The notes beneath the pieces were generated by a model that searched no databases, was not told the DNA's origin, and saw nothing but the letters and a program-made list of their open reading frames with translations. Made by a program: the position numbers and the translations under genes. A stretch of DNA of 64,000 bases from Campylobacter ureolyticus ACS-301-V-Sch3b (GTDB taxonomy: Bacteria; Campylobacterota; Campylobacteria; Campylobacterales; Campylobacteraceae), in the NCBI RefSeq assembly GCF_000413435.1, contig NZ_KE340327.1, forward strand, positions 319,667-383,666, given 5' to 3'. How positions within the stretch are numbered: the first letter of the stretch is position 1; every line of letters begins with the position of its first letter. Positions 1 to 12,524 of the stretch are shown here, one piece after another.

Positions 1-148
1 AATTTGAGTTATTATCTAAATTTAAATTATCCAAATTTTCAGTAGAATTTTATTTATTGCCAGAACTATTATTTGAATTTATTTTGCTTTTATGCTTATT
101 ATTTCTCAGATATTTCTCTTAGTTTTTCTCTTTTTTCATCGCTCAAAT
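1..148 (-). pseudogene. Broken N-terminal copy of the DDEKREKLRE membrane-protein family (runs off the window)
   Basis: Read on the minus strand from a TTG near 148, this begins LSDEKREKLRE and then needs a one-base shift to continue as YLRNNKHKSKI. That matches the start of the intact protein at 31199-32170 (DDEKREKLREYLRNN). A further in-frame stop follows in the Asn/Ser-rich linker. The TTG start and the bases before it (CTAAAAT) are shared with the intact copy. I read it as a decayed paralogue; the remainder lies left of the window, so how much is left of it is unknown. Confidence 0.6.
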
Positions 149-240
149 TTTAGTCTTTTTTGTTTTTATAAAAACTATTTTATTTTAATAGTTTAAATTT
201 TAATACTATTCAAATTTTATCTTATCTTAAATGTTTTTTA

Positions 241-345
241 AAAAAAATTGTTGTTTTTATAATTAAATTTCAAGCTGTTTTTTTCAACGCTTTCTCTACT
301 TATGATTTACTCCTTAAATTAAATTTTTTATCAAAGTCAATAAAA
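241..345. repeat. Diverged repeat of the 3' flank at 30081-30185
   Basis: About 105 bases here closely match 30081-30185, including the stretches AAATTTCAAGCTG and CAACGCTTTCTCTACT, with scattered substitutions and small indels. In the other locus this covers the last codons and downstream flank of the 315-codon reading frame. It indicates duplication of the locus followed by decay. Identity was judged by eye, not computed. Confidence 0.6.
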
Positions 346-386
346 ATAGTATCTAAAACTCTATTTGCTTCTGATTCTCTGCTCAT
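300..386 (-). pseudogene. 28-codon ORF equal to the C-terminal tail of the 30136-31068 protein
   Basis: The ORF starts at ATG 386 with a plausible AAGGA six bases upstream and ends at TAA 300. Its product MSRESEANRVLDTIFIDFD followed by KKFNLRSKS resembles the end of the protein at 30136-31068 (LDIILIDLDKKLNLKSKP). It is either a small gene made from the tail or, more likely, what remains of a deleted copy. A similar MSRES start with a premature stop lies just downstream of the 30136 gene. Function is unknown. Confidence 0.45.
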
Positions 387-402: not shown

Positions 403-1047
403 TTAATATTTAAGTGTTCCCATAATTACAGCATTTTTTTCATCGTAAGATTCAAATTTTTCTGCTAACTCAAAATATTTTTTGCTTAGTTCATCGCTCT
501 TTTTTACAAACTCTGTATCATAAGTATATATTTGAGATAAAATAACGCAAGTCATCTTATCTTCTAAAACTTCACAACCTTTTTCATAATACTTCATTGC
601 TCTGTCAATGTTTTCTTTTGTTTGACCTGCATTATAAAAATAATAATTGCCAAGACGCATACAACCATCCGAGTCGTTACCTTGACAAGCTTTTTCAAGT
701 AAGTTAAACTTTTTTTTGCTATAACCTCCATCACTATTTCCTTGAATACTTGAGTAAATCATCATACATCCATAACCACCACCCAAATCACAATATTTTT
801 GGTATCTCTTGTAAGCTTCATCTATATTTATTTTTTCAAGCCAACCTAAAAGCTCGGTGTGATGAGCACATGCATTATAATCACCATTTTTACATTTTTT
901 CTTTAAAATTTTTGGATTTGTATAACTGATAGAACCTTGTGAATCTTTATATGCAATTTGTTCTTTTTTATGTGCAAAAGCACGAGATAAAACAATTACC
1001 GCAAAAATTATATATAAAATTAATGCGTATTTTTTAAATTTATTCAA
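403..1047 (-). CDS. Sel1-repeat (HCP-like) cysteine-rich protein, probably exported
   Basis: A 214-residue protein with an N-terminal hydrophobic segment (about residues 7-22) that could be a signal peptide or anchor. Cysteines fall in four pairs (52/60, 86/94, 121/129, 158/167), the eight-residue spacing that forms one disulfide per Sel1 repeat in Helicobacter cysteine-rich proteins. The repeats are irregular, and the last one is weak. The start is TTG at 1047, supported by an AAAGGA seven bases upstream; no ATG is available near the N-terminus. Such proteins are scaffold or interaction proteins of the periplasm or exterior, and the partner cannot be read here. It lies next to decayed paired-family copies and just outside the integrated element. 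Confidence 0.75.
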   Translation of the reverse strand: MNKFKKYALILYIIFAVIVLSRAFAHKKEQIAYKDSQGSISYTNPKILKKKCKNGDYNACAHHTELLGWLEKINIDEAYKRYQKYCDLGGGYGCMMIYSSIQGNSDGGYSKKKFNLLEKACQGNDSDGCMRLGNYYFYNAGQTKENIDRAMKYYEKGCEVLEDKMTCVILSQIYTYDTEFVKKSDELSKKYFELAEKFESYDEKNAVIMGTLKY

Positions 1048-1272: not shown

Positions 1273-1289
1273 ACTTGGTGGAGGTGTGC
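1273..1289. repeat. attL core, direct repeat of the tmRNA 3' end
   Basis: ACTTGGTGGAGGTGTGC is identical to 9307-9323. It corresponds to the tmRNA acceptor-stem strand and CCA end. The bases that follow (TCTCTCTAAC) no longer resemble tmRNA, as expected where element sequence begins. Confidence 0.85.
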
Positions 1290-1351
1290 TCTCTCTAACT
1301 GCACCCTTATAACATTGATAATTTGGTAGTTTAAGATTACAAAAAATAAAT

Positions 1352-1374
1352 AACTACCTTAATTACTCCCTTAA
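1352..1374. promoter_or_regulatory. Candidate integrase arm-type sites, left end
   Basis: AACTACCTTAA (1352-1362) and the variant ACTCCCTTAA (1365-1374) lie about 65-85 bp inside the left attachment core. The same 11-mer occurs twice in direct orientation near the right core (9156-9166, 9168-9178). Repeats of this kind near both ends are what a P4-type integrase uses as arm sites. Assignment is by position and repetition only. Confidence 0.45.
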
Positions 1375-1442
1375 TGGCTATAAATAGAATGCAACAAGCC
1401 TAAACATTTTTTTATTAAATTTTAATAGATACTTTTTCTTTG

Positions 1443-1607
1443 TCATTCTGTGATATAAAATAAGTCATAAGCTAGGTTAAACATTTCTTTTGGTATTTCT
1501 TTAGTGTCTTTTATCCTATAAAGATAAAGTTTTTTTCTAAATTCTTTCATAAGTGCCTTATTACCATAGCCAAAGCACTTTTTATCAACTTCAAAATTAG
1601 CTAACAT
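1443..1607 (-). CDS. Small 54-residue protein downstream of AlpA-like gene
   Basis: ATG at 1607 to TGA at 1443 gives a 54-residue basic protein starting MLANFEVDKKCFGYGNKAL. It begins two bases after the stop of the AlpA-like gene, so it is probably translated by coupling; its own ribosome site is weak. It is the last gene before the left attachment site. I do not recognise the family. The tight spacing and the absence of other readable frames here are the only support. Confidence 0.5.
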   Translation of the reverse strand: MLANFEVDKKCFGYGNKALMKEFRKKLYLYRIKDTKEIPKEMFNLAYDLFYITE

Positions 1608-1609
1608 TT

Positions 1610-1819
1610 CTAATCTTTCTTATCGGTTCTTATATCTGTTGTAAAAAACTCATCTACTTCATCAGCTTTAAAAAGCGTAATATTAGCTGTTGGCTTTATA
1701 GTCTTTAATTTGCCACTAGCAACTAACCTCCATACTGTTGGAATTGATACGCTGTATAATTTGGCAACTTGACTAGCTCTTAACATTCTAGGGGTTTGTT
1801 TTGTAATGGTATTTTCCAT
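1610..1819 (-). CDS. AlpA/HTH_17-type DNA-binding regulator (possible excisionase)
   Basis: A 69-residue protein with a winged-helix layout: ASQVAKLYSVSIPTVWRLV (about residues 16-34) is the helix-turn-helix, followed by GKLKTIKPTANITLFKADEVDEFF, the wing and C-terminal helix typical of AlpA and excisionase-type proteins. In P4-like elements and satellites these small proteins activate int or act as directionality factors. It lies near the left attachment site and heads a two-gene unit with the 54-codon gene. A second AlpA-like gene lies at 6516-6770, so one may regulate and the other assist excision; which does what is not visible. Confidence 0.75.
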   Translation of the reverse strand: MENTITKQTPRMLRASQVAKLYSVSIPTVWRLVASGKLKTIKPTANITLFKADEVDEFFTTDIRTDKKD

Positions 1820-1971
1820 TTTAAAAATTCCTTTCTTTTTGTATTTTAGTTAAATCATTTACCGCCTTAAGTTTTCATCATTTTTAAAAAAACTAATGAA
1901 AACAATAATTTTCAATACAAAAAACTACAATAGCCCTATTTAGACGGTTTCTAACTTTCTTTAAAAGTGAA

Positions 1972-1992
1972 TTTAAGGTTCGTAACCTTAAA
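1972..1992. repeat. Perfect 9-bp inverted repeat (operator candidate)
   Basis: TTTAAGGTT and AACCTTAAA flank the three bases CGT. The site is about 150 bp upstream of the AlpA-like start at 1819, in the likely promoter region, so it could be an operator. Nothing in the sequence names the regulator. Confidence 0.45.
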
Positions 1993-2006
1993 GTGTTATA
2001 TTTCTC

Positions 2007-2050
2007 TTAAGAATTGATGAATTTTCATCATTTTTTTACTCAATTCTTAA
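2007..2050. repeat. Nested inverted repeats upstream of AlpA-like gene
   Basis: The outer arms TTAAGAATTGA (2007-2017) and TCAATTCTTAA (2040-2050) enclose an inner pair TGATGAA (2015-2021) and TTCATCA (2024-2030). ATGAAAA/TTTTCAT words recur at 1870-1910. The layout fits a binding site for a dimeric or tetrameric repressor, or a cruciform. Confidence 0.45.
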
Positions 2051-2885
2051 TTTAAGGTAATATCATTTAAACTCATATTGTTTTATTTAATGTTACCTTT
2101 AAAGATGAAATTTTACCGAAAATAAATTAAATTTAGCTTGATTGTTTTTAATTTTTAGGCTCTTTCTCTTTATTGGGTCTAACCTCTCCCCTCTCATCTC
2201 ATTAATAAATCATCTACGCTTACAGCTCTTTTTTTTCCTTTAAAGATAAAAAGGCTTTTTTCTTTTTTAAAGGTTTTAAAGGGTTACTAATAATAAAAGC
2301 TGTTTTTTCCTTACTAGAGATTAAAATTCGCTTTCTTTCCTAAGTATAAAATATAAGTAGTATTATTTATATTATTAATATTATATTATATACTTTGCAA
2401 AAATTTTTTTTTAATTTAAATTAATCACATTTAACCTTTTTTGATTACTAAAGCCATTAAAAAGAGAAATTTATTTTTAGCTATTTAGTAGATGAGTTTT
2501 GAAAAATTTAAAAATTTTCTGTGTAGGATAATATAATAACTTTGTAGAAAAATTAAAGGGTGAGGGGTCTTTATACATAAAGCCTTTAAATACACAACTT
2601 CTAACCTCATCTATTTAAAGTAATATTTAAGTTACATTTTTAATCATTTAAAAAGTTAGCTTTATTTTCGCATAAGGTTTATTAAGTGCTTTTGTAATGG
2701 TAATTGCAACTTGCAAATATTAAAATAAAATCTTTCTCTAGTGGCTAAAATTAGCCGTTTAAAAATGTTTTCCTTTGTGATTAGGTGTCTAATTGATTAA
2801 AATGCGTTTTAAGTGCCTTAGCGTTCGTTTATTAGCGTTTTATTGCTTTTAATGGCTTTTTATTAGCCTTTAAAGAAAAAAGTTG

Positions 2886-3164
2886 CTATTTATTCCAAAG
2901 ATTGCGTTTATAAATGCCTAAAATAACTATCTTGTCATCATCTATTAAGTAAGGTATCACATAGCCTTTAAAAATGAAGTCTCTTATATTCTCATCATTG
3001 AATTTAATTGATTTTCTATTTAGATAAGGCATAAAAGCAATGTTATCAAGCTTTGATTTAAGCTCTTGTTGAAATGCAATAGCTCTGTTAATGCTATCTT
3101 TTGCGATAAAATCACAAATACTATTTAATTCATCAGTAAATCTTTTACTTTCAATTATTAGCAT
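2886..3164 (-). CDS. RelE/ParE-family toxin of a type II toxin-antitoxin pair
   Basis: A 92-residue protein of normal length for RelE/ParE toxins. The N-terminal helical hairpin (about residues 8-45) is followed by strands ending in VIPYLIDDDKIVILGIYKRN, the usual C-terminal sheet with a basic residue near the end. RelE members cleave mRNA at the ribosome and ParE members poison gyrase; this sequence does not decide which. The start overlaps the upstream antitoxin gene by 14 bp, the standard arrangement for co-translation. It lies inside the integrated element, where it would act as a maintenance module. Confidence 0.75.
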   Translation of the reverse strand: MLIIESKRFTDELNSICDFIAKDSINRAIAFQQELKSKLDNIAFMPYLNRKSIKFNDENIRDFIFKGYVIPYLIDDDKIVILGIYKRNLWNK

Positions 3165-3354
3165 TTAGATACTTCCAATTACTGCCTAACGGACTTACTT
3201 TTAATTTTCCGTTTTTATAGTCGTTAATATCCTTTAAAAGCTCATCTTTAATTTTGTCTTGCTTGTCTATTTTGATATTTAAGTTATTAGCACTTATAAA
3301 CTCTAATATTTTATCTATTGCATTTTTATCAGCGTGTAAAGTTATAGTTTGCAT
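3151..3354 (-). CDS. Antitoxin partner of the RelE/ParE-type toxin
   Basis: A 67-residue protein immediately upstream of, and overlapping, the toxin gene. The N-terminus MQTITLHADKNAIDKILEFI looks like a short strand-helix dimerisation segment, and the charged middle with a tail ending SPLGSNWKYLNANN looks like a flexible toxin-binding region. I infer the antitoxin role from position, size and layout; the N-terminal family was not identified. Such pairs normally repress their own promoter, which would lie in 3355-3420. Confidence 0.65.
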   Translation of the reverse strand: MQTITLHADKNAIDKILEFISANNLNIKIDKQDKIKDELLKDINDYKNGKLKVSPLGSNWKYLNANN

Positions 3355-3853
3355 TTTGTAAAACTCCCTTACTTAATTTTTTAGAAGTCTAGCTAAAAAA
3401 TGGTAAATTTTTAATTAGTGGCTTTATCCTTTAAAGGAAAAATCGTTAAAACTCCCTTGTAATGGTGGTTTATAGCTGTGTTAAAGGGGTAGCACAGCTT
3501 AATCCCCTAAAAATGGGTGTTTTAATTAGGTGTGTTAAGGTGTGTTAAAGGCTTAACACAGCTCTTAAACTCGGTGTAATGGGTGTTTGCTTGGGGGGTG
3601 TGTTAAGTTGTGTATTTATATAAAAAACCATCAATACAGCCGATAAAAAAAGAATGAATAATTATAAAAATCTATACATATAAAGATATTTAACACACAC
3701 ATATCACAAAGCCCCTTATTATCGGTGTTAGGAGCTGTGTTAAAGGCTTAACACAGCTTAACACAGCTATGTTTAAAAGCTTTAAAAGTCCCTTTTTATC
3801 GTAATGTATAGTGTGCTACTATGATTAATACAACTAAGCCATTAAAAAAAGAG
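3355..3853. other. Gene-free presumptive replication-origin region of the element
   Basis: There is no coding sequence here. The stretch holds repeated TGTGTTAA/TTAACACA words, palindromes built from them, GC-richer patches unusual for this window and an AT-rich stretch (3612-3700). It lies directly downstream of the helicase gene. Confidence 0.6.
3474..3768. repeat. Iteron cluster based on TGTGTTAA / TTAACACA
   Basis: Copies are visible at 3474-3485 (AGCTGTGTTAAA), 3491-3502 (variant AGCACAGCTTAA), 3531-3538, 3541-3548, 3553-3563, around 3599-3606, a partial TTAACACA near 3690, and 3733-3743, 3748-3758 and 3758-3768 (AGCTGTGTTAA or its complement TTAACACAGCT). Two perfect palindromes form, at 3541-3560 and 3733-3758. 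Directly and inversely repeated words of this kind next to replication genes are typical iterons of plasmid and satellite origins bound by a Rep protein. Confidence 0.65.
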
Positions 3854-5065
3854 TTAAAGAGGTCTGTAAATCTCTAATGAATTTCGCTTTTTTTCATCTG
3901 TTTTCTCAAAAGTTAAAAACTTATTTTTTAGCTTTGGTAAAAACTCCCTTAATGCGTTACCTCCTAAAACTTCTATTCTGTTAAACTTTGCTCTTTCTAG
4001 TATTTTCTCTATAAGGTTTCTTTTGCTTATACCTGCCCTATTTTCGTTTAAAATCTCTTGTATAACCTCTATTGTGTCTAACTCTTTATCACTCATTGAA
4101 TAATCATCATAATCAACGAATTCAAGGTTAAAAGTCATAGTGTCTAATATAAAAGCTTGATTTTTCTCTAGGTTCCTGCTCTTTATTGCCTTTAAAAGGA
4201 TAAGCATTTTATCATCACTTAGCTTTTTAGATGATAAGTGATAAGAATAATCTACACTGTCATTAAATGCAGTTGCTCCCTTGTATAAGCCGTTATTTTC
4301 ATCTTTGTTTAGTGGCTGTTTTGGTTGGTGGTGTAAAAATATAACATTAGCTCCATAATCTCTTAAAGTTTGTAAATCATCTAAATAAGGCTTTACCTTA
4401 TAATCAGCACTTAAATCACCACTTATAAAGTTTCTAGCACTATCAAAGATAAAAAATGTATCATTATAAAAGTCGCTAGGTTTTTGCTCTAAGGGTTTAA
4501 CAAAATCGCTTAATAGCCTATCTTTTTTAAATGGGTTTAACTTCTTTGAGTGTAAATATTTTATTTTATTATCGCTAAACCTTATAATTTTGTCTATTTT
4601 CCTTTTTTTAACAACTTGATTGCCATTGTCGGCATCTAGGTAATAAACCTTTTTAGCAATATTATTTTTTAACATATAAAGGGATAAAAATATCGAAAAA
4701 TAGCTTTTTCCACTTCCAGCCTCTGCGTAAATCATTCCTAAGCTTTGATTAGTAATAAAGCCATTTATAAGCCAACTATCATCAAAGCCCTCTATTTCCT
4801 CGGGTGTAAGTGCAAAGTCATCAATATTATCAGGTGTTAGAGGTATATACTCTTTTTTTCTTTTATTGGCTAAAACGTTGATATTGTTGCTTTCTTTTGG
4901 TATAATAACGTTATCGCGTTTTATCATTTTGCTCCCTTTTTTGTCGGTCAAGGGGGCATTTTTATCATTGCTTACCTCATCGACTTCATCATCTTTATAT
5001 GGGTCAAAAGAATTAATTTCATTTAAAAAATTATGATATTCCTTATTGGTATTACTTATTTTCAT
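3854..5065 (-). CDS. RepA-type (AAA_25/RecA-fold) replicative helicase ATPase
   Basis: A 403-residue protein. Walker A is AEAGSGKS (residues 114-121), Walker B is FFIFDS (204-209), and VIFLHHQPK (241-249) matches the RepA/KaiC-type motif with paired His. The GLYKGATAFNDSVDYSYHL segment resembles the region after that motif in RSF1010 RepA-like hexameric helicases. The first 70 residues are charged and probably flexible. It would load at the adjacent iteron region and unwind the element DNA. The start overlaps the end of the primase-like gene by 14 bp, indicating a replication operon. Confidence 0.8.
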   Translation of the reverse strand: MKISNTNKEYHNFLNEINSFDPYKDDEVDEVSNDKNAPLTDKKGSKMIKRDNVIIPKESNNINVLANKRKKEYIPLTPDNIDDFALTPEEIEGFDDSWLINGFITNQSLGMIYAEAGSGKSYFSIFLSLYMLKNNIAKKVYYLDADNGNQVVKKRKIDKIIRFSDNKIKYLHSKKLNPFKKDRLLSDFVKPLEQKPSDFYNDTFFIFDSARNFISGDLSADYKVKPYLDDLQTLRDYGANVIFLHHQPKQPLNKDENNGLYKGATAFNDSVDYSYHLSSKKLSDDKMLILLKAIKSRNLEKNQAFILDTMTFNLEFVDYDDYSMSDKELDTIEVIQEILNENRAGISKRNLIEKILERAKFNRIEVLGGNALREFLPKLKNKFLTFEKTDEKKRNSLEIYRPL

Positions 5066-6230
5066 TTTTAAAGTCCTTTCCTTTTTTAATTAATATTTCT
5101 TTTATATTTTTTAAAAAATGGCGTGCATTTTCATATAAGAAGTTATCAAGGCTTAATAACATATCTCTTAAATCTTGTTTTATATCTTTTTCGTTTTGTG
5201 TTATGCCCATTAGCCTATAAAAAGAGAAGTTAAAGAAGTCTTTTAGCCTTTCACTTGCTTTATAATCAGCATTTAGGTCTAAAATCTCTTTTTTGTCATA
5301 ATCCACTAAAAAAACAGCCGTTGCATTAGCTCCAAAGCTTTTAACTACTTCTTTAAAGGTGTTATTATCTACATAAGTGTTACTACTTTGTAAAACTATG
5401 TAGTTAAGTCCTAAAGAATGAAATATAAAGCTATCTATTGCGTGAAAACTGATAAAAATATAATCATCAGTTTTAAAGCAATGATGAGATATAAACTTCG
5501 TATCCATTGGGATATTTTTTATCTTATTGCCATTTTTAAACCTTATTTCTTTTGAAAACCACCACTTATCAACTCTGTATTTAAGTAGCCTTAAATGGTT
5601 ATTTTCATCAGTAAATTTTAACTGCACTTCATTATTAAAAAAAGCAATGTATTTAATAAAAGCCTCTTTAAAGTGTAATAAACTTCCTTGAGTGTCTAAG
5701 TAAGTTATAAAGCTACTTCCTAAGTGAGTGTTTAGGAAGTCTTTTATTATCTTAGTTTCATCTTTATATTTAGCGTTTGGCATTATCAAAAGATTATTAG
5801 CCAATCCATTATCAAAGATAATTTTAAGAAAATCATTATTTCTACTTATAACCTCATCGACTTGTAAATTTGGTTCAAATTTTTCTTTTATAGGCTCTTT
5901 AATAGGCTTATTAAGCGATGAGGTTGCAAATGTGTTACTTGGTATAGCTCCCATACCTAAAAAGCCTTTTACATACTCTAAAGCCTCTTTAAAACTCATA
6001 CCTCTATAATTCTGTAAGACATCAATAACATCACCACTAAAACTACCGTTAAAGTCTGTAATTAGTAGTCCATTCTTAGCAATTGAAGCACTTGGGTTTT
6101 TATCATCATCTCTAAGCCTAAAATTGCCTTTAGGAGGAATGTTAAAGCCTTGGCTGTTGAGTATAGCTATAACAATATCTCTGTTTAGCTGTTGCTTAAT
6201 TTCGGCTATTGTTGGATAACTCATTATCAT
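5052..6230 (-). CDS. Primase-like protein (CHC2-like N-terminus, Toprim-like middle)
   Basis: A 392-residue protein. Residues about 15-92 (FRLRDDDKNPSASI, then ITDFNGSFSGDVIDVLQNY) follow the DnaG-type zinc-domain pattern, but the zinc-binding Cys/His residues are absent. Residues about 255-330 resemble a Toprim fold, with VFLVDYDKKE giving the D-x-D pair (310, 312). The usual Toprim Glu is not evident in ISFHAIDSF. It would prime replication of the element together with the RepA-type helicase downstream. The start overlaps the preceding gene by 35 bp; an ATG two codons in is an alternative. Catalytic competence is uncertain. Confidence 0.65.
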   Translation of the reverse strand: MIMSYPTIAEIKQQLNRDIVIAILNSQGFNIPPKGNFRLRDDDKNPSASIAKNGLLITDFNGSFSGDVIDVLQNYRGMSFKEALEYVKGFLGMGAIPSNTFATSSLNKPIKEPIKEKFEPNLQVDEVISRNNDFLKIIFDNGLANNLLIMPNAKYKDETKIIKDFLNTHLGSSFITYLDTQGSLLHFKEAFIKYIAFFNNEVQLKFTDENNHLRLLKYRVDKWWFSKEIRFKNGNKIKNIPMDTKFISHHCFKTDDYIFISFHAIDSFIFHSLGLNYIVLQSSNTYVDNNTFKEVVKSFGANATAVFLVDYDKKEILDLNADYKASERLKDFFNFSFYRLMGITQNEKDIKQDLRDMLLSLDNFLYENARHFLKNIKEILIKKGKDFKNENK

Positions 6231-6519
6231 CCTCCAAAGCTTTGTTAATAATGGCTTCTAAACTATTTCTTACCTTTTTATTTTTATAAAGTTTTTTTAG
6301 CCCTCTTGTTGTAAAGTAAAAAGGGTCTTTATTGTAAGAGATAAAGCCTGTATCTGTTTTAAAGGCTACTTGTCTAACTTTAAAATCAATACCTAAAATT
6401 AGCTTATTAGTATCTATTCCTAAATCTTTTAAATTTGAAAAATCAATTAAAGGATAAGGGCTATTTATATAATCTCTATCTAAAGAGTTGTAATTTTTAA
6501 TTAAAGCTTTAAGGGTCAT
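6196..6519 (-). CDS. Hypothetical 107-residue protein of the replication operon
   Basis: I do not recognise this protein. It is soluble, Lys- and Asn-rich, and contains LGIDFKVRQVAFKTDTGFISY, which could be a small beta domain, followed by a basic helix ending LEAIINKALEDD. It starts within the end of the AlpA-like gene (4-bp overlap) and runs 35 bp into the primase-like gene, so it is certainly in the same operon. A role in replication or its control is inferred from position only. Confidence 0.55.
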   Translation of the reverse strand: MTLKALIKNYNSLDRDYINSPYPLIDFSNLKDLGIDTNKLILGIDFKVRQVAFKTDTGFISYNKDPFYFTTRGLKKLYKNKKVRNSLEAIINKALEDDNELSNNSRN

Positions 6520-6770
6520 TTTTCATCCTTTGAAATTGCTTTACTTTTTTGATGACTTAATAACCAACTATGAATTTGGTCTTTGTTATAAAGTATCTTT
6601 TTCCCTATTTTTACAAATGGTAAAGGGTTTTTACTATTTAACTGCGTTTTTCTCATCCTTAATTTTTCTTGATATGAAATAGCTAACCCTAATTCTTTTT
6701 CTAGCTCTGCAGGGGTAAGCCACTCGGTGCCTAAGCTCTCTTTGCTCGGTAAAGTTGTTAATTCTTGCAT
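6516..6770 (-). CDS. AlpA/HTH_17-type regulator heading the replication operon
   Basis: An 84-residue protein. WLTPAELEKELGLAISYQEK (about residues 17-36) is the first part of a helix-turn-helix, and PFVKIGKKILYNKDQIHSWL (about 51-70) is the wing and closing helix characteristic of AlpA and excisionase-like proteins. It is the first gene of the operon for the 107-residue protein, the primase-like protein and the helicase. In Gram-negative satellites an AlpA-like gene in this place often controls the replication module; that function is inference here. The 207 bp upstream are non-coding and should hold its promoter. Confidence 0.7.
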   Translation of the reverse strand: MQELTTLPSKESLGTEWLTPAELEKELGLAISYQEKLRMRKTQLNSKNPLPFVKIGKKILYNKDQIHSWLLSHQKSKAISKDEK

Positions 6771-6934
6771 TTATTTATCCTATTTAAGTTATTTTGATAA
6801 ACTTTCTAGCTAGTTTCGTTTATTCTGAGTGCATTTTAAAAAGAATTTTAAAAAACAGCAACGCAAAAGTGCTTGTGTTTAATGAGAAAAAAATATAAAA
6901 TTTTTATTGTTGTGTGAGTTTAAAAGTCTTATTT

Positions 6935-6962
6935 TAAGGGGCTTTGCAATAAACACAAAGCC
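6935..6962 (-). terminator. Hairpin after the integrase-unknown gene unit
   Basis: GGCTTTG (6940-6946) and CAAAGCC (6956-6962) form a 7-bp stem with a nine-base loop, 16 bp beyond the stop of the unknown gene at 6978. The run of T after it on the minus strand is poor, so it may be a weak terminator or an operator. The first arm lies in TAAGGGGCTTTG, which recurs inverted at 3707-3718. Confidence 0.4.
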
Positions 6963-6977
6963 ATTTGTGAAAGGTAT

Positions 6978-7739
6978 CTATTTTATTTGAAAATATTTTT
7001 TTATTTTGTTTGCAAGCTCATTCCTTTCTATTGTGTTTACAATATCAACATTATAAATTTTTGCACTTTCTAACACTGAATTTTTAAAATTAGAAATAAT
7101 ATCGCTAATATTTTTATTATAATTTGTCTTAATATCGAAATTTTCTTTTTCTACAAAAGCACCTATTTTTTTAAAATAGTTATTTGCACTTTCATAAAAT
7201 TCCATAAAAGATTTTTGCATTTTATTTTCTAAATTTTCGGTTTCTATTACAATATTACTAACTCCACCAATTGCAAATGTTAACAACTTCATAGCTTCTA
7301 AGTATTTTTCATATCTTATTAAATTTTCACTTTTAGAGTTATCATCAATAATATTTTTAATTTGTGTAATTTTTATAAAAAATAGTGCAAATTCTGAAAC
7401 AACACAAAGGTATCCAATTTCATATTTTTTAAATCTAGTTAATGGTTCAAAATCACTAAAATTTAAATTTTCAGTGTTTCCATTTTTAATATCTATTTCC
7501 ATTTTTCTAAATTCAGATAAAGCATTATTTAAAATATCATCAAATTTATCGTGCTCTACTGCCTTAATATACGTGTCTTCATCCTCTTTTATCCATATGT
7601 TTTCACTATTTATAATATCTTCGTAAAAAATAACCCTTTCTCTCTTACTTAAATTTTTTTTAACTTCTTTAAAAAAATCTAAAACTTGCTTGTCTGTTTC
7701 TTTATCTTTTTGTTCTTTTTGTTCGTAATTGTAAGCCAT
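6978..7739 (-). CDS. Unknown 253-residue protein translationally coupled to the integrase
   Basis: I do not recognise the family. The protein is mostly helical and charged. It has two moderately hydrophobic helices around residues 110-127 (GYLCVVSEFALFFIKI) and 149-165 (MKLLTFAIGGVSNIVI) that could be membrane-associated or a buried core, and Lys/Asn-rich flanks. Its ATG lies two bases after the integrase stop, and the end of int supplies its ribosome site (AGGTGG). It is the only element gene with no recognisable mobility, replication or toxin-antitoxin feature, so it is the best candidate for accessory cargo, for example superinfection exclusion or defence; this is inference from position. 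Confidence 0.6.
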   Translation of the reverse strand: MAYNYEQKEQKDKETDKQVLDFFKEVKKNLSKRERVIFYEDIINSENIWIKEDEDTYIKAVEHDKFDDILNNALSEFRKMEIDIKNGNTENLNFSDFEPLTRFKKYEIGYLCVVSEFALFFIKITQIKNIIDDNSKSENLIRYEKYLEAMKLLTFAIGGVSNIVIETENLENKMQKSFMEFYESANNYFKKIGAFVEKENFDIKTNYNKNISDIISNFKNSVLESAKIYNVDIVNTIERNELANKIKKYFQIK

Positions 7740-7741
7740 TT

Positions 7742-9010
7742 TTAACCACCTATTCCTAAATTCTCTAAATTGTTTAAATAATCACTATACCACTGCATAA
7801 GTTTTAGTTTTGTGTTAAATGTAGCCCTTTGTCGTTCGTATGCTTGTGTTATTTTGTTATTTTCTTTGTGTGCTAATACTTCCTCTATTGTTTTTTCACT
7901 TATCCCTAACCTGTAAAGAGTAGATAAATTCAAAGTGCAAGTTGTTTTAAAAGTAGCTCTAAATCCGTGCGGGGTAGCGACACCTTTATACTTTCCATTA
8001 TTTAGCGTTCTTATAGCTTTGCTTAATGTATCTCTGTTTAAATACCCTGTTTTGGTTGTCATACTAGGGAAAACAAATTTATAATTTTGTGAGTAAATAA
8101 ACTGCTCTTTTAGTATCTTTACAGATTCATCACTTAATGCAGTTGTATGGGATAATCTCATCTTCATATCAGTAGCTACAATATCCCACTTTTTGGCGTT
8201 TAAATCAATATCTTGCCATTTTGCACTTACAATATTAGCGGGTCTATTAGCCGTTAAAAGAAGTAAATAAATTGCTCTTTTAGTTTGTAAGTCCATTGCG
8301 TTATCATATTTCAAATCTTTTATAAAATCAGCTAATAAGTTTTTATCTATAATCGCACTATAACGAGTATCTATCCCTTTGTTCTTATTAAATTTATGTG
8401 AAGTTGGAAATTCATCTTCCAATTTAAAAGCGGGGTTGTAAGTCAAATACCTATCTTTAATGGCTAAATCAAAGATATTTTTTAAATCATTTATTATTCT
8501 ATGTATTGTTTCAAGTCTTGTTGGTTGGTCTGTGTTGTGTTTATTAAAAAGTGGTCTTAACATATCGCTAAGTTTTGATGAGGTTATCTCTTTGCAGTCA
8601 AGCTTTGCTAAATTTGGTAAAGTATAAAGCTCGTGCCTACGCTTGATATTTTTTAAATATTCACTACTAACACTATCTGATTTAATTTTAATAAATCTAT
8701 CATATAAACCCTTAAAAGAGTATTGGTCTTGGTTTGATAAAGCCTCTAAACTAAGCCCAATATTTAGCTTTTTGAGTAAATCAACCGCTTCTTTTCTAGC
8801 TTCATTAACACCATAAATTCCATCTCTAAACTCATTTATTTTTTTAGTTTTATCATTTTTTAACCTTAAAAAAAAGGTTTTTATTCCACTTGGATTTACC
8901 CAAATATAAAGCTCTTTAGGACTTCCAACAACTTTTTTATACTGCCTTAATTTTGGTTTTAACTCCCTTATGTTTTTATCGGTTAAATAAGTTTTTGTTA
9001 CATTTGCCAT
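7742..9010 (-). CDS. int: Tyrosine integrase, P4-type with N-terminal arm-binding domain
   Basis: A 422-residue protein. Residues about 5-90 form the DUF4102-type arm-binding domain seen in P4-like integrases (YLTDKNIRELKPK, WVNPSGIKTFFLRL). Residues 97-195 form the core-binding SAM-like domain and 215-400 the catalytic domain. Catalytic residues are visible: R256 (TANRPAN), K283, H348 and R351 (HGFR), H381 (LAHKENN) and the nucleophile Y391 (QAYERQ). All are present, so the enzyme should be active. It would integrate and excise the element at the tmRNA 3' end about 300 bp away. Confidence 0.92.
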   Translation of the reverse strand: MANVTKTYLTDKNIRELKPKLRQYKKVVGSPKELYIWVNPSGIKTFFLRLKNDKTKKINEFRDGIYGVNEARKEAVDLLKKLNIGLSLEALSNQDQYSFKGLYDRFIKIKSDSVSSEYLKNIKRRHELYTLPNLAKLDCKEITSSKLSDMLRPLFNKHNTDQPTRLETIHRIINDLKNIFDLAIKDRYLTYNPAFKLEDEFPTSHKFNKNKGIDTRYSAIIDKNLLADFIKDLKYDNAMDLQTKRAIYLLLLTANRPANIVSAKWQDIDLNAKKWDIVATDMKMRLSHTTALSDESVKILKEQFIYSQNYKFVFPSMTTKTGYLNRDTLSKAIRTLNNGKYKGVATPHGFRATFKTTCTLNLSTLYRLGISEKTIEEVLAHKENNKITQAYERQRATFNTKLKLMQWYSDYLNNLENLGIGG

Positions 9011-9155
9011 AACTTTACCTTAAATTTATGATTTTTAAAAAAATATAAGAATTAGTTTTTATTTGCTTATAGTTAAGTAAAAAAAATTAGTAGCTAAACA
9101 CTAATTTTAAAATCTCACTTCACGGGTATTTGCTAAACTCCCATAAAAAATTACT

Positions 9156-9178
9156 AACTACCTTAAAAACTACCTTAA
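9156..9178. promoter_or_regulatory. Candidate integrase arm-type sites, right end
   Basis: AACTACCTTAA occurs at 9156-9166 and again at 9168-9178, 12 bp apart in direct orientation, and once at the left end (1352-1362). Spacing of about one helical turn and presence at both ends fit integrase arm binding, though an operator for int is also possible. Confidence 0.5.
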
Positions 9179-9200
9179 TAATTTAGAGTTTATTGTAACA

Positions 9201-9230
9201 TAAAAAGAAGTAAAAAGAAGTAAAAAGAAG
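9201..9230. repeat. Three perfect tandem copies of TAAAAAGAAG
   Basis: The 10-mer is repeated exactly three times with no spacer, between the arm-like sites and the attachment core. Helically phased A-runs may bend the DNA; it could alternatively bind a directionality factor. Confidence 0.6.
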
Positions 9231-9306
9231 TTAAAACATTATTTTAACGGCTTATTGTTTCAACAAAAATAAATCAAAATAACTTAAGAAAACTTAAAAT
9301 AAACTT

Positions 9307-9323
9307 ACTTGGTGGAGGTGTGC
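9307..9323. repeat. attR core within the tmRNA 3' end
   Basis: Identical to 1273-1289 over 17 bp. It covers the CCA end and acceptor strand of the tmRNA gene, which is regenerated intact after integration. Confidence 0.85.
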
Positions 9324-9702
9324 GGTGTCGAACCGCAGTCCAAAAGCAAAAGACCAAAGTCTCTATACATGTTTAGCGAAAGTGAAATTTCGTTTAAGAA
9401 GGCCCACTTTCATTTTGCTAGCAGTTAAAATAACAACTAAGCAAAAAACCAAACTCTTAAACTAAGACAAGAATTTCATCTAAATGCTTGTCAAACATTT
9501 AAACTACACTATTTAAATGACTTGCTACTTTGCCTAAATAGTATCAGCAAATGCAAGGCTCAACTGAACTTACGCTACTTTAGCGTAAGCAGGAGCAAAT
9601 TTAACGTTATTTGCGTTTAATTTTAATTTGAGCTTTTAACGCTTTGCTCAAAGCGACATGCAACCGTGACCGTTTAACTCCTGTCGAAGCCAAGTCACCC
9701 CC
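9310..9702 (-). ncRNA. ssrA: Transfer-messenger RNA (tmRNA)
   Basis: On the minus strand the RNA begins GGGGGTGACTTGGCTTCGAC at 9702 and ends in the T-arm and ACCTCCACCA at 9310. The ends pair as GGGGGUG with CACCUCC (one G-U). An internal tag frame (9614 to 9570) encodes ANNVKFAPAYAKVA and a TAA stop. The RNA is about 393 nt. It rescues stalled ribosomes with SmpB, which is not in this window. The 3' end is the integration target of the adjacent element and has been restored. Confidence 0.95.
9570..9614 (-). other. tmRNA proteolysis-tag reading frame
   Basis: GCA at 9614 is the likely resume codon. The frame reads ANNVKFAPAYAKVA and ends in TAA at 9570. The C. jejuni tag as I remember it ends AYAKAA, so the penultimate Ala is Val here. 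Confidence 0.85.
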
Positions 9703-9803: not shown

Positions 9804-10469
9804 ATGAAAAAAACTATTATTTTATCTATTTTATTATCACTTAGTCTAAATGCAAGTGAAAAAACAAGAGATTATTTTAGTGAAGATTTAAATGTTGATG
9901 ATGGGCATCAAGCATTTGTTGAAAACAAATATGAAAAATCAAAAGAAATTTGGACTAAACTTTGTAATGAAAACGATGGCAAAAGCTGTACAAATTTAGC
10001 ATGGCTTTTAGATAATGGTTTAGGTGTAGAAGTTGATAAAGAAGAGGCTATAAGGCTTTACGAAAAAGGCTGTGAATTAGGCAGTGCCGAGGGTTGCTCG
10101 AACATAGCTACAATGTATTTTAAAGGTGAAGTTGTAGAAATGGACTTTGAAAAAGCTTTTAAATACTATGAAAAAGCTTGTGAGTTAAACCACCCTTTAT
10201 CATGTGCGCAAGTTGGATATATGTATGAATTTGGCGATGGTGTAGAAACAAATATCCATAAAACTTTTGAATACTATGATAAATCATGCCAACTTGGATA
10301 TGGTGAAGGATGTACAAATTTAGGAACTCTTTATGCCAATGGAAATGGTGTAAAAATCGATATTGAAAAAGCTGGTGAGTACTTTGCAAAAGGTTGTGAC
10401 TTAGGACATGAGCAAGGTTGCAAATATGAAACACAACTAAAAGAGTTAAAGTTAAAGGGTGAAATTTAA
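9804..10469 (+). CDS. Secreted Sel1-repeat (HcpA-like) cysteine-rich protein
   Basis: A 221-residue protein with a signal peptide ending near LSLNA-SEK (residue 17). Five Sel1 repeats follow, with cysteine pairs at 54/62, 90/98, 126/134, 162/170 and 198/206, an exact 36-residue period. Each repeat has the pattern A..Y.KAC....G..C.N.G. Helicobacter HCP proteins of this build are periplasmic or released scaffolds with one disulfide per repeat. It is followed five bases later by ruvB, so the two may be cotranscribed. A TAGAAT box lies about 40 bp upstream. The binding partner is unknown. Confidence 0.88.
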
Positions 10470-11488: not shown

Positions 11489-12524
11489 ATACTTTTTTGT
11501 AGGTTTTATACTTTTTTTATTTTGTTTTGTGATTTATCTTTTTAACGGTTTTTTGCTTACAATTGCTATTGGGATACTTTTAGCTGTTTCAACTGCAAAT
11601 ATTAATAGATTTTTCCTTAAACTAACAAATGATAAAACTCTACTCTCAGCAACCTCTACAACTCTTGTTTTAGCACTATTTTTTTTAGTGCCATTTATGT
11701 ATGCAGTTATTGAACTTGCAAAATACGCATCAAATTTTGATATGAAAAATACATCTATTGTATTAAATTATATACAAAATTTTAATTTTCACTTGCCTGA
11801 AAAATTTGCATCTTTTGAACCAAAGATAAAAGAATTTATAGCCTCAATAAACATAAATTCCTTAGTAAAACAAGGCGCAACTTATCTTTCTACCATAGGC
11901 AAATCAAGTGCAAAATTTATTGTAGATATGGGTCTTATAATAGCATTTTACTTTTTTGCAAATTTATATGGAAAATCTCTTATGAATTTTTTAAAAGAAA
12001 CTTTGCCAGTTGAGGCTTCACATATAGATTCAATCTCTCATGAAGTAGCAAATACAATGAGTGTTGTTTTATACTCAACCATAGCAACTGCTGTTTTACA
12101 AGGATTTTTATTTGGTGTTTTTCTATCATTTTATGGATATGATGGCTTTTTAATGGGAATTTTATATGCCTTTGCATCACTTGTGCCAATAGTTGGTGGA
12201 GCTTTGATATTTGTGCCAATTAGTATTTATGAATTAGCCAATGGCAATACACTAAATGCAATTATAATATTTTTATATTCAATCATTATGATAGCAACTA
12301 TTGCTGATAACTTTATAAAACCATTAATAATTAGATTCATAAACTCAAAACTTGTAAGTAGCCCTGCTAATATAAATGAGCTTTTAATATTTTTTGCCAT
12401 GCTTGCTGGACTCTCAACATTTGGCTTTTGGGGAATTATCCTAGGGCCTGCAATTGTAACACTATTTATTGCTTCATTAAATTCATACAGAATAATGACA
12501 AAAGAATTTGATAATTTAGACTAA
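11475..12524 (+). CDS. AI-2E family (PerM-type) membrane permease
   Basis: A 349-residue protein starting at ATG 11475 inside the end of ruvB; an upstream extension in the same frame is antisense-like coding of ruvB and has no signal. It has about eight membrane helices in the AI-2E family pattern, with the conserved stretches [23 protein letters not shown] (about 244-262) and [14 protein letters not shown]. Members export various small molecules or ions (for example TqsA for AI-2, or Na+/H+ exchange); the substrate is not predictable. Confidence 0.85.

What the first reader, a model, noticed from the sequence alone, without database searches (positions are those of the whole stretch)
1273..9323. 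Compact 8-kb satellite-like element in the tmRNA gene
The sequence shows a 17-bp duplicated tmRNA end, a full tyrosine integrase, two AlpA-like regulators, a primase-like protein plus RepA-type helicase, an iteron region and a toxin-antitoxin pair, with no capsid, packaging or transfer genes. Phage satellites of other Gram-negatives have this core (integrase, AlpA, primase/rep). I know of no well described satellite of this kind in Campylobacter, so it may be a new family that needs a helper phage.
Basis: partly seen in the sequence, partly recalled or inferred. Interest (0 to 1): 0.7.

Follow-up and report, generated by a model that had tools for sequence, protein, structure and literature searches.

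The report
Helper-dependent island in Campylobacter tmRNA gene
An intact-looking 8-kb mobile DNA element sits in the tmRNA gene of a Campylobacter ureolyticus-like bacterium; it encodes its own integration and copying proteins but no recognised means of moving between cells, so it probably hitchhikes on a phage or a conjugative element, and which of the two is not known.

Summary
Window 1290-9323 is an 8,034-bp insertion at the 3' end of ssrA, bounded by an exact 17-bp repeat; a related genome, G001, has the empty site. It encodes a tyrosine integrase, two AlpA-type regulators, a DnaG-like primase protein, a RepA-type helicase and a ParE-type toxin-antitoxin pair, with a repeat array. No capsid, packaging, relaxase or T4SS family was found.

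The order int / int-adjacent gene / alpA / small gene / primase parallels PICMI satellites, and phage-carried tmRNA islands are published. But 8 of 17 Campylobacterota loci with the same AlpA2 and RepA genes (group A) also carry a relaxase, i.e. are or were mobilizable elements. The primase module is shared with a second set (group B), in which 0 of 11 loci carry that relaxase family. The element is a mosaic of both. No helper is identified, and five viral-contig scans found no close relative.

Best reading: a replicating, helper-dependent 'hitcher' island, phage-type transfer favoured over trans-conjugation but not shown. New variant of a known kind; interest 0.5.

The parts
1273..1289 (.). 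distal copy of the 17-bp att repeat (end of the element)
   Evidence: exact match to 9307-9323
1443..1607 (-). 54-aa protein of unknown function, kin in three group B loci
   Evidence: 36-39% to L041, L148, L155
1610..1819 (-). AlpA1, AlpA/excisionase-type regulator at the distal end
   Evidence: PF12728 33.6 bits, phrog_66 E 3e-7; 40-44% to AlpA of L037, L039, L155 (group B), 26% to L152, but also 37% to a second AlpA of L051 (group A)
2886..3164 (-). ParE-type toxin
   Evidence: PF05016 E 5e-11
3151..3354 (-). likely antitoxin of the ParE pair
   Evidence: overlaps the toxin gene; 37% to the gene before ParE in L047
3464..3770 (.). GTGTTAA/TTAACAC repeat array with inverted pairs, candidate origin
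   Evidence: 9 copies in 3478-3764
3854..5065 (-). RepA-type AAA helicase
   Evidence: PF13481 E 6e-13, phrog_6357 E 2e-39
5052..6224 (-). primase-like protein, DnaG zinc-ribbon-like plus TOPRIM (ORF from 6230; most homologues and a GGAGG site favour the start at 6224)
6196..6519 (-). 107-aa protein between alpA2 and prim (position of PICMI up1)
   Evidence: no Pfam or PHROGs family; overlaps both neighbours
6516..6770 (-). AlpA2, first gene of the alpA2-p107-prim-repA overlapping series
   Evidence: HTH_17 E 6e-4, below cut-off; 31-56% to the AlpA of 17 group A loci
6978..7739 (-). 253-aa protein starting 2 nt after int (position of PICMI iolg/icg)
   Evidence: a gene stands 2 nt after int in L041 and L037 too; it is 30% identical in part in L041, not similar by BLAST in L037
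7742..9010 (-). tyrosine integrase beside the tmRNA
   Evidence: PF00589 E 7e-20; one clade with 11 group A-type integrases, 100/100
9307..9323 (.). tmRNA-side copy of the 17-bp att repeat, in the tmRNA 3' end
9310..9702 (-). tmRNA (ssrA), target gene, intact

Best explanation
A complete, probably functional integrative island that excises and replicates by itself but borrows its transfer: a 'hitcher' element. Shown: precise insertion at ssrA with a 17-bp repeat, an empty site in a related genome, and open reading frames for the ten genes. Inferred: the integrase with AlpA2 (perhaps helped by the int-adjacent p253) excises the circle; alpA2-p107-prim-repA, whose reading frames overlap one another, is switched on as one unit; RepA and the primase-like protein copy the circle, perhaps from the GTGTTAA repeat array; ParE and its partner help to keep it. 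Least certain: the copies are then packaged by a helper phage through a DNA signal alone, as has been suggested for PICMI satellites.
Confidence: 0.5

Rival explanations
1. A relaxase-less integrative mobilizable element (iOriT type): it excises and replicates, and is nicked and transferred in trans by the relaxase and T4SS of a resident conjugative or mobilizable element.
For: AlpA2 and RepA as in 17 loci of which 8 carry a MobA/VirD2-type relaxase, and one integrase clade (100/100) with 11 islands, three of which, L047, L048 and L051, have it; MobC-like genes in L001, L002, L046, L047, L053. iOriT elements are an established class (passages of PMC11389934).
Against: No relaxase or MobC remnant in the element by tblastn. 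Stretches before ten mob genes (three of them placed only roughly) gave 492 short matches to the element against 264 to a shuffled one; the two best lie inside repA, and the best non-coding one (21 bp at 3394-3414, L051) is not among the segments that the mob stretches share with one another. The test is weak: an oriT for another relaxase family would be missed. At least four of the eight relaxase frames are short (181-298 aa), so part of group A may be decayed.
Confidence: 0.27
2. An integrated plasmid-like island with no present means of transfer (stranded or vertically inherited), kept by the toxin-antitoxin pair.
For: RepA helicase, direct repeats and a TA pair are plasmid-like; about 1 kb (1820-2885) without a recognised gene; no transfer gene found.
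Against: The ten ORFs are open; 26 Prim clusters at 76-88% identity argue for continued exchange and selection; no match in the plasmid collection for the DNA or for Prim.
Confidence: 0.2
3. A decayed prophage that lost its late genes.
For: Integrase and AlpA-type genes occur in prophages; a RepA-like protein, 29% identical, lies in phage CAM-P21.
Against: No structural or lysis family among the ten proteins; islands of 5.9 to 13.5 kb between tRNA/tmRNA repeats with a similar core were found in nine loci.
Confidence: 0.03

Closest known systems
PICMI satellites of Vibrionaceae (PMC10803314; passages, sections 10 and 12 read)
   Same: Small island (average 6.7 kb against 8.0 kb); int, a gene overlapping or touching int, alpA, often a small gene, then a primase gene; no identifiable packaging genes; six divergent PICMI elements have two or three alpA genes.
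   Different: PICMIs sit at fis and have a DUF3987/DUF5906 primase; here the site is ssrA and the primase is DnaG/TOPRIM-like with a separate RepA; no helper known.
tmRNA islands I23/I44/I55 of Pseudomonas fluorescens (PMC12595487; abstract and passages)
   Same: Integrase beside tmRNA, short direct repeat at the tmRNA 3' end (14 bp), AlpA gene at the far end, no recognised autonomous transfer genes; I55 is carried by a jumbo phage.
   Different: Those share a region of about 18 kb and carry putative defence systems; no RepA/primase block was mentioned in the passages seen.
PICI EcCIMP1 of E. coli (PMC11773190; three passages)
   Same: Integrase, two AlpA regulators, primase/helicase, no identifiable terminase or capsid-morphogenesis gene.
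   Different: Has a proven helper, phage Kapi1; another host; no sequence link tested here.
Campylobacterota islands with Int-AlpA-RepA and a relaxase (in group A here, e.g. L047, L051, L048)
   Same: Integrase clade (complete rows 40-53% identical), AlpA2, RepA, tRNA sites; a ParE gene in L047 and L051.
   Different: They carry a relaxase; none of the 17 group A stretches gave a Prim hit. Prim-like frames do lie 14-17 kb from RepA, outside those stretches, in three of these genomes, G010, G057 and G101.

Membership tests
PICMI | integrase (PF00589) | tested here: met
   E 7e-20
PICMI | AlpA (PF05930 or PF12728) | tested here: met
   AlpA1 over the PF12728 cut-off; AlpA2 below it
PICMI | DUF3987/DUF5906 primase | tested here: not met
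   no such match in Prim or RepA; four group B proteins do have one or the other
PICMI | integration at fis | tested here: not met
   site is ssrA
PICMI | packaged as concatemer by a helper phage | not testable with these tools
   needs lysates
PICI (Gram-negative) | integrase, AlpA and primase/helicase core | tested here: met
PICI (Gram-negative) | induced and mobilised by a helper phage | not testable with these tools
   no helper known
P4-like satellite | sid, psu, delta, epsilon genes (recalled) | tested here: not met
   no such family in the Pfam or PHROGs scans of the ten proteins
Integrative mobilizable element | integrase, no mating-pair genes | tested here: met
Integrative mobilizable element | relaxase (iMOB) or oriT (iOriT) | tested here: inconclusive
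   relaxase not found; oriT search weak and without a clear match
Prophage | capsid, terminase, tail genes | tested here: not met
   none among ten proteins

The most novel reading that the evidence does not exclude
A Campylobacterota phage-satellite lineage built on the same integrase-AlpA-RepA chassis as mobilizable elements: swapping the mob module for a primase module between alpA and repA would mark a switch of helper from conjugative element to phage, with this element, which has two unlike AlpA genes, as the hybrid.
Probability: 0.25. Interest if true: 0.75.

Novelty: new variant of a known kind. Interest (0 to 1): 0.5.

Why it matters
Small islands without transfer genes are common, and how they move is an open question. 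If phage transfer were shown, this would extend satellites of PICMI-like layout to Campylobacterota and show one chassis serving both conjugative and phage hitchhiking. Searches of the held library for Campylobacter with 'phage satellite' and 'tmRNA', Campylobacterota with 'phage satellites' (no paper), Campylobacter with 'SatelliteFinder' and with 'phage-inducible chromosomal island' (10 of 26 listed), and looser ones listed no paper whose title is about such an element; I saw listings only, and the library lacks most subscription papers.

Tried and rejected
Own assembly: not held. Viral contigs: five scans, no relative of RepA or Prim; none for Int from one sequence, 54 loci at 22-33% identity from an alignment. 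Plasmid collection: no match for the element DNA or Prim; RepA one match at 30%. Phage collection: no Prim match; RepA two at 29%; Int 197 records, all under 60% and 25-29% in the 20 rows shown. PADLOC: hits of AlpA1 to mad1 (E 4e-7), RepA to mad8 (7e-6) and Prim to a DnaG-like model (4e-4), read as shared domains and not as a defence system. Structure of p253: mean pLDDT 41.6, not used. Contig lengths as a sign of circles: 5 of 26 Prim clusters have a longest contig of 7.8-8.5 kb, but none of 23 RepA clusters does (nearest 8,687), so I do not use it. att repeats in relatives: found for L037 (9.7 kb), L040 (5.9), L041 (13.5), L042 (8.6), L048 (10.9), L053 (11.7), L150 (10.1), L153 (10.5), L154 (9.7); none, or only short doubtful ones, for L001, L002, L004, L038, L043, L044, L047, L049, L051, L052, L148, L151, L155; the other loci were not tried. 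AlpA tree: mostly unsupported, used only as a hint. Repeat clusters beside RepA in relatives gave mostly A/T-rich words of other sequence, so the array is not shown to be a family trait.

Rows dropped: group A counts 17 RepA loci with an AlpA2 hit (L001-L005, L038, L040, L042, L045-L053); left out are L043 and L044 (no AlpA2 hit), L006 (contig fragment) and L054-L056 (RepA only). L003 and L046 are much alike; L003, L005 and L045 show no Int hit in the stretch and L050 only a 25% one. The integrase tree has 11 group A rows, L043 among them. Group B counts L037, L039, L041, L148-L155; L155 has no Prim hit, L037 and L039 are near copies. L156 (no hit), L158 and L159 (Prim-like hit, no integrase hit) and the other hits were not counted. 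Ten ORFs of the 113 listed were not put into A4. Searches show only the first 25 of 104 and of 61 families. Fisher test 8/17 against 0/11, P 0.0097; the loci are not independent, and G115 has a relaxase match 2.8 kb outside the fetched stretch L039.
Full report
Observation. The finding is real and its coordinates are exact. The 17-bp sequence at 1273-1289 recurs at 9307-9323 and nowhere else in the window. The right copy is the 3' end of an intact tmRNA gene. The nearest genome held, G001, has one copy, in the 20 kb examined, joining DNA like the left flank (91%) to DNA like the right flank (96%). The insert is therefore 8,034 bp with one repeat. The host is a Campylobacter ureolyticus-like bacterium: the five named near relatives of Prim and the five of RepA are from that species. 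The 60 ORFs of 90 aa or more right of the tmRNA read by eye as ordinary chromosomal genes; no family scan was made of them.

Anatomy. The ten genes are on the minus strand, from the tmRNA outwards: integrase; p253, starting 2 nt later; AlpA2; p107; primase-like protein; RepA-type helicase; a repeat array; antitoxin and ParE toxin; about 1 kb without a recognised gene; AlpA1; a 54-aa protein; the second repeat. alpA2, p107, prim and repA overlap one another. No relaxase, T4SS, capsid, terminase or tail family was found among the ten proteins in Pfam, PHROGs or NCBIfam; PADLOC gave only shared-domain hits.

The repeats. GTGTTAA/TTAACAC occurs nine times within 3478-3764 and five times in the rest of the window; inverted pairs are present. 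The commonest word exceeds every one of 500 shuffles only for 10-mers, equals the highest for 8- and 9-mers, and stays below it for 7-mers. Iterons remain a likely reading, not a proof.

Relatives. A RepA search of 199 genomes hit 38. I fetched wider stretches for 20 places, six named loci and 13 further stretches. Group A: 17 loci with AlpA2 and RepA, the two within 200 nt (hit edges) in 15 of 17. Eleven complete integrases of this type, 40-53% identical to this one, form one clade with it at 100/100. Eight of the 17 loci carry a MobA/VirD2-type relaxase, found by tblastn and by PF03432: L003, L045, L046, L047, L048, L050, L051, L053. At least four of these frames are short. Three of the eight (L047, L048, L051) have a complete integrase of the clade. 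These are, or derive from, mobilizable elements. Group B: 11 loci with the primase module (mostly split into two genes) or its neighbours. Where an integrase hit was found it is 23-29% identical to this one, and the seven B integrases put in the tree fall outside the clade. None of the 11 stretches carries a PF03432 relaxase, and six of their ten genomes have none. For 103 of their proteins from seven loci the 25 families shown include integrases, AlpA, helicases and primases, ParE, transposases and single cargo genes, many PHROGs without known function, and no capsid, packaging or relaxase family. Two B loci have DUF3987 and two B proteins DUF5906, the primase families of the PICMI model.

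Mosaic. This element has the integrase type and AlpA2 of group A, while Prim, the 54-aa protein and p253 find kin only among group B loci in this set. AlpA1 and ParE have kin in both: AlpA1 at 40-44% in L037, L039 and L155 and at 37% in L051; ParE in L047 and L051 as well as in B. RepA is 39-43% identical to three B loci and 30-42% to the A loci, so it does not tell. In 15 of 17 A loci AlpA2 and RepA are neighbours; here p107 and prim lie between them. This fits recombination between the two kinds, or an ancestral state from which each lost a module; the data do not decide. Prim-like frames 14-17 kb from RepA in three group A genomes blur the split and were not resolved.

How it works. Inferred: AlpA-directed excision, RepA and primase-like replication of the circle, upkeep by the TA pair, and transfer through a helper. 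PICMI offers the closest parallel in gene order and in needing no packaging genes. Published tmRNA islands have a similar layout and one travels in a jumbo phage; a two-AlpA PICI lacks identifiable terminase and capsid-morphogenesis genes. Against this stand the group A relaxases and the lack of close relatives in viral contigs. I give about one half to a helper-dependent replicating island with phage-type transfer favoured, about a quarter to trans-conjugation, and a fifth to a stranded island.

Membership. It is not a PICMI (wrong site, wrong primase family), not P4-like, not a prophage, and not a relaxase-bearing IME. It meets the gene core of Gram-negative PICIs, but the helper test could not be made. 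Novelty: a new variant of a known kind.

Noticed in passing
window 5052-6224: The TOPRIM glutamate is lost in 24 of 29 aligned primase-like proteins while the three aspartates are kept.
   Followed up: partly
L002:8531-8852 and 11616-11937: A 322-nt perfect inverted repeat bounds the repressor-AlpA2-RepA-MobC segment of a relative (a MAG); either an invertible segment or an assembly artefact.
   Followed up: partly
window 403-1047 and 9804-10469: Genes that by eye look like Sel1-repeat proteins flank the site; window 1-360 has many matches in G001, so the left stretch belongs to a multi-copy family there.
   Followed up: no
L053 (G005, tmRNA): Another tmRNA island, 11.7 kb between 15-bp repeats, with broken integrase, RepA and relaxase genes: a decayed mobilizable element at the same kind of site.
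   Followed up: partly
L093 (phage CAM-P21): A RepA-like protein, 29% identical, is encoded by a Campylobacter phage.
   Followed up: no
L042:13066-16643, L048:13263-17193, L049:13009-16792: Large genes in group A islands that by eye look like helicase and methyltransferase (possible defence) cargo; no family scan was made.
   Followed up: no
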